A stretch of 45,276 bases of DNA, taken from contig DXHL01000018.1 of assembly GCA_019113395.1 (NCBI GenBank), forward strand, positions 1-45,276, in the 5' to 3' direction. Under the pieces are notes generated by a model. It made no database searches and was not told where the DNA came from. It was given only the letters and a program-made list of their open reading frames with translations. The position numbers and the translations under genes are program-made. Below, piece by piece: positions 1 to 45,276 of the stretch; the stretch's first letter is position 1; each line of letters begins with the position of its first letter. This DNA comes from Candidatus Rikenella faecigallinarum (GTDB taxonomy: Bacteria > Bacteroidota > Bacteroidia > Bacteroidales > Rikenellaceae).

Positions 1-148
1 GTAAACATTTCCAACAATAGTCCATTCTCACTTCCTTCAATCAAGGGGTTTCCATTGGAGTCAAATATTGGTATAGTACTTACACCACTATAAGAATCGC
101 TTATTATCGTGCTGCCGTCGGCGCCCGGAAATCCGTCCTTGCGGCCCC
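1..148 (-). pseudogene. Silent FISUMP cassette A (5' part, cut by window edge)
   Basis: On the minus strand the fragment opens with the 44-bp conserved arm (105-148), read as GRKDGFPGADGSTI. It then reads IISDSYSGVSTIPIFDSNG and on to EGSENGLLLEMF, where the window ends. The reading frame is the same as in the four complete cassettes of this window. It has no start codon of its own. The in-frame codon three positions before GRKD is the TAG stop of proA (156-158), so the cassette lies directly behind proA in the same frame but separated by a stop. No promoter element is visible between proA and the arm. The body is AT-rich against a GC-rich arm. It is the C-terminal part of a FISUMP-type domain; the silent-donor role is inferred. 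Confidence 0.8.
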
Positions 149-155
149 TAAACCA

Positions 156-1406
156 CTACCCCCGTATCTGACCGTCCCCGCAAATAACGTATTTGTAGCT
201 GGTCAACTCGCGTAAGGCCATCGGGCCCCGTGCATGCAACTTCTGGGTGCTGATGCCGATTTCTGCCCCTAACCCGAATTGAGCTCCGTCGGTAAAGGCT
301 GTCGAAACATTGCAATAAACACATGCAGCATCCACGCAACGAGTAAAGAGTTCACAAGCCGCCGAGTCCTCGCTCACTATGGCCTCACTGTGTTTGGAAC
401 TGTAACGGGCAATATGCTCGATAGCTTCCTCCAGGGAACCGACCGTGCGAATGGCCATCTTATAGTCCAGAAATTCCGTACCGTATGAGTCCGGCGTAGC
501 TTCGCGCAGCAAAGGACGGGGGTAGTGACTCTGTAGCGCCTCCCAGGCCTCACGGTCGGCATAAAGGATGACATTGCTGTCGGCCAGCATGTTGCAGATT
601 ATCGGCAGGTCGGATAAACGTTCGCGGTGAATCAGCAGACAGTCCAACGCATTGCAGACACTAACCCGCCGTGTTTTGGCGTTATTAACGATAAGGGCTC
701 CTTTGACCTTGTCACCGGCCCGGTCGAAGTAGGTGTGGCAGATGCCGGCTCCGGTTTCAATGACCGGTACACGGGCATTGTCGCGGACGTAACGGATAAG
801 GCGTTGGCTGCCGCGCGGAATCACCAGGTCGATGTAGCCCACGGCTCCCAGCATTTCGGTTGTCGCGGCATGGTCGGCCGGCAGCAGTTGTACGGTATTG
901 GGGTCTATGTTGTGGGCGCTTAGGGTGTCGCGAATGAGTGCCACAATAGCCTGATTAGAGCAGAGTGCATCGGTTCCCCCCTTGAGAATGACGGCATTAC
1001 CCGACTTGAAACAAAGGGCAAAACAGTCAAAGCCCACATTGGGACGGGCTTCGTAGATAATTCCGATGACGCCGAACGGCACGGAAACTTTTGTAATGGT
1101 CATGCCATTGGGTCGGGTGGTCTGGTCGAGAGTCAGCCCGAGCGGAGAGGGCAGCGATGCCACATTCCGCATATCGTGAGCAATGCCCGCAAGACGTTCT
1201 TCGGTCAGTTTGAGTCGGTCGTAACGGGGGTCGTCGGGAGCCATGCGGGTGAGGTCCTGAGCATTGGCCTCGAGTAGCGAAGCGCTCTGTTCGAGGATAC
1301 GGTCGGCCACGGCATTCAGGACGCGTTGGATGGCGGAGGATTCGAGCTGGGCCAACTGTTTGGCGGCAGTCTGAGCCTGTTCAAAAAGGGCGGTGCAGTT
1401 TTCCAT
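156..1406 (-). CDS. proA: Gamma-glutamyl phosphate reductase (glutamate-5-semialdehyde dehydrogenase)
   Basis: This cytoplasmic enzyme of proline synthesis reduces gamma-glutamyl phosphate to glutamate-5-semialdehyde with NADPH. The product is 416 residues, the usual ProA length. Family signatures seen include GVIGIIYEARPNVGFDCFAL, the segment KSGNAVILKGG, and RRVSVCNALDCLLIH near residue 250, which contains the catalytic cysteine. The start was set at the ATG at 1404-1406 (MENCTALFEQAQ). An extension to 1457 would add 17 residues that overlap the promoter element. No proB lies beside it in this window. Its stop is followed within about 8 bases by silent cassette A on the same strand and frame. 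Confidence 0.95.
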   Translation of the reverse strand: MENCTALFEQAQTAAKQLAQLESSAIQRVLNAVADRILEQSASLLEANAQDLTRMAPDDPRYDRLKLTEERLAGIAHDMRNVASLPSPLGLTLDQTTRPNGMTITKVSVPFGVIGIIYEARPNVGFDCFALCFKSGNAVILKGGTDALCSNQAIVALIRDTLSAHNIDPNTVQLLPADHAATTEMLGAVGYIDLVIPRGSQRLIRYVRDNARVPVIETGAGICHTYFDRAGDKVKGALIVNNAKTRRVSVCNALDCLLIHRERLSDLPIICNMLADSNVILYADREAWEALQSHYPRPLLREATPDSYGTEFLDYKMAIRTVGSLEEAIEHIARYSSKHSEAIVSEDSAACELFTRCVDAACVYCNVSTAFTDGAQFGLGAEIGISTQKLHARGPMALRELTSYKYVICGDGQIRG

Positions 1407-1454
1407 ATCGGGAGAGTAAAAAGAGCAGAACAAAGCAATTTTCCACTTATAAAA

Positions 1455-1462
1455 CAAAGATA
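1455..1462 (-). promoter_or_regulatory. Bacteroidetes -7 element for proA
   Basis: The minus strand reads TATCTTTG, a perfect TAnnTTTG match, about 50 bases before the proA ATG. No convincing TTTG -33 element was seen at the usual distance. Confidence 0.6.
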
Positions 1463-44250: not shown

Positions 44251-44296
44251 GAATCGTGGGTGTAAGGAGAGTGTATGGTTATCTATGTTTTTCGGG

Positions 44297-44304
44297 CTAA
44301 GATA
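44297..44304 (-). promoter_or_regulatory. -7-like element for the ClC gene
   Basis: The minus strand reads TATCTTAG, one mismatch to TAnnTTTG, about 47 bases before the ATG. Confidence 0.35.
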
Positions 44305-45140
44305 ACGATTTTCGAGTTTTTACCGCTTGGTTTCGATGTATTGTTGTCCGAGTCTGTTGATTTGGACCATTGTGTTTGTCGTCGGGAAGGTGTGTTGGAT
44401 TCTGTGTTGCGGGTTCTCGGATTGTTAAGGATTTGCTTATGGATAGTGGTGCCAGGTGCTGCTCGGCACCCTTCGCGGGGCGAGATTGCGGCACGCACGA
44501 CTGCTTACGAAGTCACACTCTACTCTCGATACCCTATGCTACGTATATCTCGGTCTTCGGCCACCCCGACGGATGAAAGCCGTCCAGCACCTGACCGACG
44601 GGTTGCCTCAGCAACCTGATGCTTCTCGGCACACGAGAAGAACCGTATCTGCTGGGATGTTTTGGTTTCGTCAGAAACCGTCAGCCCGCAGGTGCCACGG
44701 GCACACCGACAGAGAGTTTGCTTGACGAATAAGCGGCGGCCTGGTGCCGTCCCCTTCGCTGGCTGCGGGGACTGCCGGGCACTCCAGCTGATTTGTGTTT
44801 ACCTCACACTCCGCCGGCTGTGGGGAATATGTTTTGTGTTTTCGGCAGCAGCCTGTGAGATACAGGGTACATTCTGCTCGGTTCGAGTGCCGAGCGGCAC
44901 CAGCCCTCCGCATCCGGGCGGCTCCGGGCTGACGGGTTGCCTCAGCAACCCGATGCCGTTTGATACACGAATCGATTTGTGTTTTGCCACAAAGCGTTCT
45001 CAGGATGGGACCAGTGGGTTTTAGGATAGAGACGGCTCGGCTGGGGTGCCCAGCGGCACCAGGCCTCCACCGGGGGTGGTTCCGGCCTGACAAAGGGAGT
45101 TTGCTTCACCTATGTTTGAGACCATAGCTTGGTGCCCTTT
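44305..45140 (-). repeat. Trailer of cassette F, mosaic of shared modules
   Basis: No gene is seen in this stretch of more than 800 bases. Bases 44305-44447 hold nothing recognised. 44537-44690 and 44760-44819 are inverted near-identical copies of 29699-29850 and 29580-29640. 44901-44953 is an inverted identical copy of 7714-7766. 45031-45066 again has a GGCTCGGCTGGGGTGCCCAG type module. Read on the minus strand, away from the arm of cassette F, the modules occur in the same order as behind cassettes B and D. Small overlapping reading frames on both strands are considered chance. Confidence 0.8.
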
Positions 45141-45276
45141 TCGTGTCAGGTCTTCCTCGCTTGGGGTTTATCTGCTCTTTGCGCTCTCTTCTCTCCGGGA
45201 GAGCCTGAGCTGCTCCCTGCGCCTTCCCCCTCTTCCCCTACACGGATACCCCTGCGGATTACTCCTCCCTTATCCC
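45141..45276 (-). repeat. Part of the 3' arm of a sixth cassette (F)
   Basis: On the minus strand the sequence reads GGGATAAGGGAGGAGTAATC, GTATCCGTGTAGGGGAAGAG, GCGCAGGGAGCAGCTCAGGC and GATAAACCCCAAGCGAGGAA, ending GACCTGACACGAAAAGG. This is the arm found after the stop codon of all complete cassettes. The coding part should lie just outside the right edge of the window; that is a prediction. Confidence 0.85.

What the first reader, a model, noticed from the sequence alone, without database searches (positions are those of the whole stretch)
1..45276. Genome-dispersed silent FISUMP cassettes: a candidate undescribed gene-conversion or antigenic-variation system
Seen: five start-less gene fragments (1-148 -, 6863-7504 +, 11148-11762 +, 28632-29270 +, 33630-34256 -) and the tail of a sixth (45141-45276 -), one about every 7.5 kb, all in gaps between housekeeping genes and in both orientations. 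All begin at the same codon (GRKDxFPGADGSTI), the complete ones end in RCxQE-stop, and all have conserved sequence at the available ends with diverged middles. Known: in Bacteroidales FISUMP proteins the GRKD motif lies inside the domain, after WMDRNLGA and YQW, so these fragments cannot be complete domains. Inference: they are donors copied into one or more expressed surface proteins through the shared ends.
Basis: partly seen in the sequence, partly recalled or inferred. Interest (0 to 1): 0.95.

Follow-up and report, generated by a model that had tools for sequence, protein, structure and literature searches.

The report
Pilus gene edited from silent spares
A gut bacterium of the genus Rikenella carries 43 complete but start-less copies of one end of a single predicted pilus gene, scattered round its genome, and stretches identical to such copies sit inside the complete gene, so the bacterium likely keeps changing its surface by copying these spares into that gene.

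Summary
The genome has 43 complete start-less FISUMP cassettes, all 43 open, plus partial copies at contig ends. A ~42-nt 5' arm (91% identical) and a ~160-nt non-coding 3' arm (mostly 92-96%) flank bodies saturated at silent sites. One acceptor gene exists: a lipoprotein with FimA-type, Ig-like and FISUMP parts, reading DRNLGA..YQW|GRKD. Its variable start is a mosaic: 79 nt identical to one silent cassette and 113 nt identical to another, overlapping by 13 nt. Two database versions of this acceptor carry other segments: one is 214/214 aa identical to a cassette found without the acceptor body, the other 210/211 aa identical to a silent cassette of this genome. Silent loci also carry each other's bodies in other samples. 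No reverse transcriptase was found. Relatives have shorter cassettes, one in an array of about 100 units. Best reading: segmental homologous gene conversion diversifies a predicted pilus adhesin. It works like pilE/pilS, vlsE or p44; no paper on such a system in Bacteroidota was found. Switching in live cells and function are untested.

The parts
1..147 (-). 5' part of a silent cassette, cut by the contig end; 5' arm 105-146
   Evidence: its last 131 nt equal the end of contig C25, which has another upstream flank
6863..7504 (+). complete silent FISUMP cassette (5' arm 6866-6907, stop at 7502-7504)
7502..7662 (+). conserved 3' arm from the stop codon on
11148..11762 (+). complete silent FISUMP cassette (5' arm 11151-11192)
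11760..11920 (+). conserved 3' arm
28632..29270 (+). complete silent FISUMP cassette (5' arm 28635-28676); the same body is in metagenome protein P0123 (100%)
29268..29428 (+). conserved 3' arm
33630..34256 (-). complete silent FISUMP cassette (5' arm 34212-34253)
33472..33632 (-). conserved 3' arm
45138..45276 (-). 3' arm of a further cassette whose body lies beyond the contig end (right-hand limit of the arm set by eye)

Best explanation
The window's fragments are silent donor cassettes that are likely copied, whole or in segments, by homologous gene conversion into the variable C-terminal end of one complete pilus-type lipoprotein gene elsewhere in the genome. Shown by sequence: 43 complete dispersed cassettes with intact frames; near-identical 5' and 3' arms around bodies saturated at synonymous sites; a single acceptor whose frame continues through YQW into the arm; an acceptor allele that is a two-donor mosaic over the 203 nt that can be read; and two further acceptor alleles whose segments are 214/214 and 210/211 aa identical to cassettes. 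Inferred: strand exchange by the RecA pathway, with the ends of a tract falling in the arms or in short shared stretches inside. Inferred: the same process also moves bodies between silent loci, so the repertoire itself is reshuffled. Predicted: the acceptor lies at the cell surface as a pilus subunit or tip, and the FISUMP domain is the exposed binding part. The use (evading antibodies or phages, or changing the ligand) is untested.
For: Acceptor: L089 3-1826 (-), at least 608 aa, lipoprotein-type start by eye, PF06321 and DUF4906 over their cut-offs, next to an Mfa-like fimbrillin gene; the stretch before the junction occurs once in the genome. Mosaic: exact 79 nt with C28:37665 and exact 113 nt with C21:7548, overlapping by 13 nt; with both ends trimmed these are 58 and 83 nt, while under that trimming no pair of complete silent cassettes shares more than 35 nt. 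Other alleles: the constant part differs at 2 of 541 aa (P0001) and at 0 of the 283 aa before the arm (P0003); P0001's segment is 214/214 aa equal to P0121, a cassette without the acceptor body; P0003's is 210/211 equal to silent C13:5517, next best 49%. Arms and body: 5' arm nt identity 0.91, body pS 0.753 against pN 0.382 with pN below pS in 903 of 903 pairs; 3' arm 0.79 in the first 20 nt, 0.92-0.96 for nt 21-140, 0.82 to nt 160, then about 0.4; upstream flank 0.23-0.46 as far as nt -7. Silent loci: of 20 metagenome cassettes assigned to a locus by flank peptide, 5 carry the same body as in this genome (>=95%), 4 the body of another locus (P0179 with 20 of 20 flank residues, P0174 10 of 11, P0185 7 of 7, P0147 7 of 8), 10 a body under 95% to any cassette here, and P0156 is one cassette split over two contigs. 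Other species: G007's acceptor shares 40 and 55 nt exactly with one array cassette within its last 130 nt; in near-complete G002 the acceptor shares its 3' end (31 nt before and 82 nt after the end of the stop) with an inverted cassette nearby, and 41 + 26 + 26 nt of body-side sequence with another. RecA is present.
Against: No reads or culture were examined, so switching within one lineage is inferred from different assemblies. P0003 has a foreign N-terminal part (PF06134), so its contig seems chimeric at least there. Contig C6 ends 203 nt into the variable part, so the acceptor's 3' arm and the full tract are unseen. For P0001 no cassette of this genome is closer than 55%; its match P0121 comes from other samples. 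The assemblers behind the database proteins are unknown; short flank peptides (6-12 aa) are weak locus tags, and a few loci share flank repeats. In G026 no stretch of 20 nt or more is shared by acceptor and array. In G002 the longest shared stretch is arm, not body. Transfer that leaves the donor unchanged was not shown; exchange could be reciprocal.
Confidence: 0.87

Rival explanations
1. Each cassette is a small gene translated on its own from a near-cognate start.
For: All 43 frames are open and under purifying selection; 9 of 43 have an ATG in the open frame upstream; gene callers made proteins of many.
Against: They start at nearly the same point inside the domain; the upstream flanks are mostly unrelated (0.23-0.46 as far as nt -7; 8 of 1081 pairs of loci with flank similarity); purifying selection is expected too if the segments are read after transfer; acceptor alleles carry cassettes.
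Confidence: 0.03
2. The cassettes are dispersed decayed copies of a mobile element, with no function.
For: Dispersed, both strands (24 - and 19 +), ragged left borders, conserved ends.
Against: No decay: 43 of 43 open; bodies differ to saturation while ends stay alike, the reverse of a recently spread element; the same bodies are found inside the acceptor.
Confidence: 0.02
3. A site-specific (integron- or inverton-like) recombinase swaps whole cassettes at the arms.
For: Whole bodies are found at other loci that keep their flanks; the arms are short and conserved.
Against: The break inside the acceptor mosaic lies in the body at nt 90-103, and silent P0135/P0142 share only their first part (by eye); the left borders are ragged by tens of nt. 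Recombinase genes were not searched.
Confidence: 0.04
4. A diversity-generating retroelement mutates the acceptor, and the cassettes are by-products.
For: Fib_succ_major, in one case with an Mfa2 domain in one lipoprotein, is on a published list of DGR target domains (PMC4159848, passages seen).
Against: No RVT_1 match in the 98.65%-complete genome, while the control rang in 3 of 14 genomes; whole segments are copied, not scattered single changes.
Confidence: 0.01
5. Mosaic and copies are assembly artefacts of a strain mixture.
For: At least 14 of 76 contig ends lie in or within 170 nt of a cassette (my count); P0003 seems chimeric at its N-terminus.
Against: Contig ends overlap by exactly 131 nt in four pairs, which suggests joins made with words of 131 nt, longer than any exact 5' arm match (at most 54 nt); P0121 is a cluster of 5 sequences on 4 contigs and P0001 one of 6 sequences on 1 contig (clusters are made at 90%).
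Confidence: 0.05

Closest known systems
Anaplasma phagocytophilum msp2/p44 functional pseudogenes
   Different: Unrelated protein family and phylum; here a pilus-type lipoprotein with a FISUMP domain, and silent loci carry each other's bodies in different samples
Borrelia vlsE / vls array
   Same: Contiguous silent cassettes and one expressed surface lipoprotein, segmental conversion (abstracts in the listing); G026 and G007 look like this
   Different: vls has 15 cassettes in strain B31 (start of abstract, PMC3585125) with ~90% identity to vlsE (start of abstract, PMC11499132); the G026 array has about 100 units with far more diverged middles, and the window's own system is dispersed
Neisseria pilE/pilS
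   Same: A pilus protein varied from silent partial copies (abstracts in the listing)
   Different: Type IV pilin, not a FimA-type fimbrillin; whether the G-rich 3' arm acts like the pilE G4 site (recalled) is unknown
Treponema tprK donor cassettes
   Same: 53 silent donors into one site by segmental gene conversion (PMC10063172, passages seen)
   Different: 51 of 53 tprK donors lie together; seven small variable regions instead of one long C-terminal segment
DGR-diversified Fib_succ_major / Mfa2 lipoproteins of the human gut
   Same: Same kind of domain pair is varied (PMC4159848, passages seen)
   Different: Engine is a reverse transcriptase with template repeat; none found here
Porphyromonas gingivalis fim/mfa allelic exchange
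   Same: FimA-type fimbrial proteins of a Bacteroidales species with variable alleles (PMC5266723, passages seen)
   Different: Exchange between strains; the word 'silent' has 0 occurrences in that paper's text

Membership tests
Gene-conversion surface variation with silent donors (works-like class) | One complete expression gene with the same junction as the donors | tested here: met
   Only one match to the part before the junction in the genome
Gene-conversion surface variation with silent donors (works-like class) | Several partial donors without own start | tested here: met
   43 complete plus partial copies; 34 of 43 without an ATG in the open frame within up to 300 nt upstream
Gene-conversion surface variation with silent donors (works-like class) | Acceptor sequence drawn from donors, in segments | tested here: met
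   from assemblies
Gene-conversion surface variation with silent donors (works-like class) | Donor unchanged after transfer (non-reciprocal) | tested here: inconclusive
   Both donors of the mosaic are present in the same genome, but silent bodies also move between loci
Gene-conversion surface variation with silent donors (works-like class) | Dependence on RecA-pathway genes | not testable with these tools
   recA is present once; dependence needs a mutant
Gene-conversion surface variation with silent donors (works-like class) | Variation within one clone under immune or other selection | not testable with these tools
   No reads or culture
FimA-superfamily (type V) fimbrillin: acceptor | FimA-type domains | tested here: met
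FISUMP / Fib_succ_major (PF09603) | Score above the family cut-off | tested here: inconclusive
   The four complete window cassettes match with 17.9-27.4 bits, cut-off 33.9; P0123, the same body as 28635-29267, carries the assignment in the database
C-type-lectin-like fold | Structural match of the variable domain | tested here: inconclusive
Diversity-generating retroelement | Reverse transcriptase | tested here: not met
Integron-like cassette system | Exchange only of whole cassettes at fixed sites | tested here: not met
   Break inside the body; P0135/P0142
Integron-like cassette system | Integrase gene | not tested
   No search made

The most novel reading that the evidence does not exclude
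Rikenellaceae gut bacteria run a family-wide, antibody-like gene-conversion engine on the binding end of a type V pilus adhesin. Donor sets range from a handful to about 100 cassettes per genome, in three border types and both dispersed and tandem layouts. Silent loci trade bodies too, so the donor library itself evolves as a shared pool. The same domain class that other gut bacteria diversify with reverse-transcriptase retroelements is here diversified by recombination alone.
Probability: 0.63. Interest if true: 0.93.

Novelty: new variant of a known kind. Interest (0 to 1): 0.88.

Why it matters
Donor-cassette gene conversion is known mainly from pathogens. A system of this size in gut Bacteroidota, acting on a pilus-type adhesin, would mean that commensals also use programmed surface variation, and that two unrelated engines (retroelements and gene conversion) have converged on the same domain. 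It would make testable what drives the variation there: IgA, phages or changing ligands. It also warns that short-read genomes of this family break at, and may misreport, the varying gene.

Tried and rejected

Prior work: ten searches of the held papers. None of the papers listed is, by title and start of abstract, on silent cassettes or gene conversion in Rikenella, Alistipes or FISUMP genes; listings were capped (20 of 60, 20 of 147, 8 of 9). 'FISUMP' itself gave 0 papers. Subscription journals are mostly not held. A recent report on retroelement-varied Bacteroides pili is recalled and was not seen.

Full report
What was checked. The window is contig C30 of a 2.07-Mb, 38-contig genome, 98.65% complete. 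Its genus: a named record, 'uncultured Rikenella sp.', 6239 bases, has the same length as contig C129 of G007, a genome of the same genus, and several relatives of the acceptor are named Rikenella. The five fragments and the sixth tail are real; each lies in a gap between longer reading frames (the neighbours' gene names typed there are my own readings and come from no annotation).

Genome-wide count. The 5' arm with up to 3 mismatches: 43 places, reversed control 0. Cassette protein: 52 places, 0 with internal stops. 3' arm: 41 places. After reading them out, 43 are complete; the other 9 are cut by contig ends (6), are the acceptor (C6), or are distant (C5:2470, C3:2434).

Anatomy. In 43 aligned cassettes the first 14 codons have nucleotide identity 0.91. 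The body falls to 0.42-0.65 in blocks of 14 codons, with synonymous differences at saturation (pS 0.753) and pN 0.382; the last 11 codons are at 0.72. After the stop codon a non-coding arm (41 copies long enough) is at 0.79 for the first 20 nt, 0.92-0.96 to nt 140, 0.82 to nt 160, then lost. Upstream identity is 0.23-0.46 as far as nt -7 (35 copies), and the left border is ragged by tens of nt, one copy keeping 27 nt of the acceptor's own upstream sequence. The body's GC is 0.42 against 0.52-0.59 along the window. 73% of 3' arm pairs share an exact run of 30 nt or more (median 37), enough in principle for homologous pairing; 5' arm runs are shorter (median 19, maximum 54).

Evidence for copying. 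(1) Within this genome: acceptor nt 24-103 equals C28:37665 exactly and nt 90-203 (contig end) equals C21:7548 exactly, with 13 nt common to both; with both ends trimmed these are 58 and 83 nt, against at most 35 nt between complete silent cassettes. (2) P0001, whose constant part differs at 2 of 541 residues, carries a segment equal in 214 of 214 residues to P0121, which has no acceptor body but a short unrelated N-terminal peptide; no cassette of this genome is closer to it than 55%. (3) P0003, constant part identical over the 283 residues before the arm, carries silent C13:5517 at 210 of 211. P0003's own N-terminus is foreign, so (3) alone would be weak. (4) Silent loci: 20 of 67 metagenome cassettes could be assigned to a locus here by their flank peptide; 5 have the same body, 4 the body of another locus, 10 a body under 95% to any here, 1 (P0156) is one cassette split over two contigs. 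The 67 are among the 120 listed of 1832 matches. Flanks showed similarity above the threshold in 8 of 1081 pairs of 47 loci. (5) The window's own left end and contig C25 enter the same body from different flanks, sharing exactly 131 nt.

Mechanism. Conversion through homology explains whole-body copies bounded by arms, mosaics with breaks in short shared runs, and body swaps between silent loci with flanks kept. RecA is present. No reverse transcriptase was found. A site-specific enzyme alone would not give breaks inside the body. Direction, rate and control are unknown. The G-rich 3' arm is a possible initiation site, an idea only.

Relatives. At E 1e-5 the seven other genus genomes give 0, 7, 39, 7, 83, 43 and 29 matches (G001-G007; full genes are included in these counts). 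In G006 and G003 many are a ~150-aa class starting near NLSGFYF (31 and 30 matches), in G006 with its own short 3' arm. A third class of ~65 aa (PGYR..RCLQ) occurs singly or in tandem, as in G007:C17 with ~250-base units. G007's acceptor, cut by its contig end, shares 40 and 55 nt exactly with one array cassette. In near-complete G002 an acceptor shares 113 nt of 3' end and arm with an inverted cassette nearby, and 41 + 26 + 26 nt of body-side sequence with another cassette. In another genus, G026 (100% complete) has 102 copies of the 3' arm over 23 kb, starting at an 813-aa lipoprotein-type frame; 97 of 98 arm-to-arm segments are open; there no 20-nt donor match for the present acceptor end was found. 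G036 has 64 small matches at E 1e-4, many with ~70-aa frames on separate contigs. In the 150-genome family sample 78 had a match; about 20 candidates per genome were scored there.

Known or new. It works like msp2/p44, vlsE, pilE and tprK, and belongs to none of those protein families as far as the Pfam scan shows. A review of bacterial antigen variation has 0 occurrences of 'Bacteroid' and of 'Porphyromonas' in its text (PMC4534519, passages seen). The same kind of domain pair is a listed retroelement target (PMC4159848, passages seen). I therefore call it a new variant of a known kind, in a new phylum and on a new protein, pending proof of switching in a culture.

Noticed in passing
G026:C1:401985-424991 (L222/L223): Tandem array with 102 copies of the 3' arm, median unit 212 bases, starting at an 813-aa lipoprotein-type frame; 97 of 98 arm-to-arm segments are open; no 20-nt match to the acceptor end.
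   Followed up: partly
G007:C17:3900-8462 (L207): Vls-like tandem micro-cassettes of about 250 bases with alike ends and different middles.
   Followed up: partly
G036, many contigs: 64 short FISUMP-end matches, many with ~70-aa frames, one to a few per contig, in a third genus.
   Followed up: no
G000 contig ends C25/C30, C2/C17, C12/C21, C20/C6: Four pairs of contig ends share exactly 131 nt, probably the assembler's word length; at least 14 of 76 ends lie in or near cassettes.
   Followed up: yes
G000 loci C8:18290, C20:43552, C25:53023, C25:21, C21:7548; also C30:28635 with C36:10711: These silent loci share part of their upstream flank (for example a GGTGCGATATG repeat), unlike most others.
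   Followed up: partly
window 7680-7900, 33160-33460, 44400-45130: Gaps behind the 3' arms hold further repeated stretches (for example GGTTGCTGAGGCAACCCGTC), some of which recur behind other cassettes.
   Followed up: no
3' arms, e.g. window 11760-11920: 71% purine and G-rich on the coding strand; relaxed G4 motif in 42 of 43 arms.
   Followed up: partly
P0003: The acceptor relative is fused to a PF06134 (rhamnose isomerase type) N-terminal part, probably a chimeric contig.
   Followed up: partly
G000:C5:2470-2673 (L096): A diverged cassette end with a different 3' arm, perhaps a relic of another cassette class.
   Followed up: no
G006:C4:65209 (L144): A FimA-type gene frame is cut by a stop just before a cassette of the ~150-aa class.
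   Followed up: no
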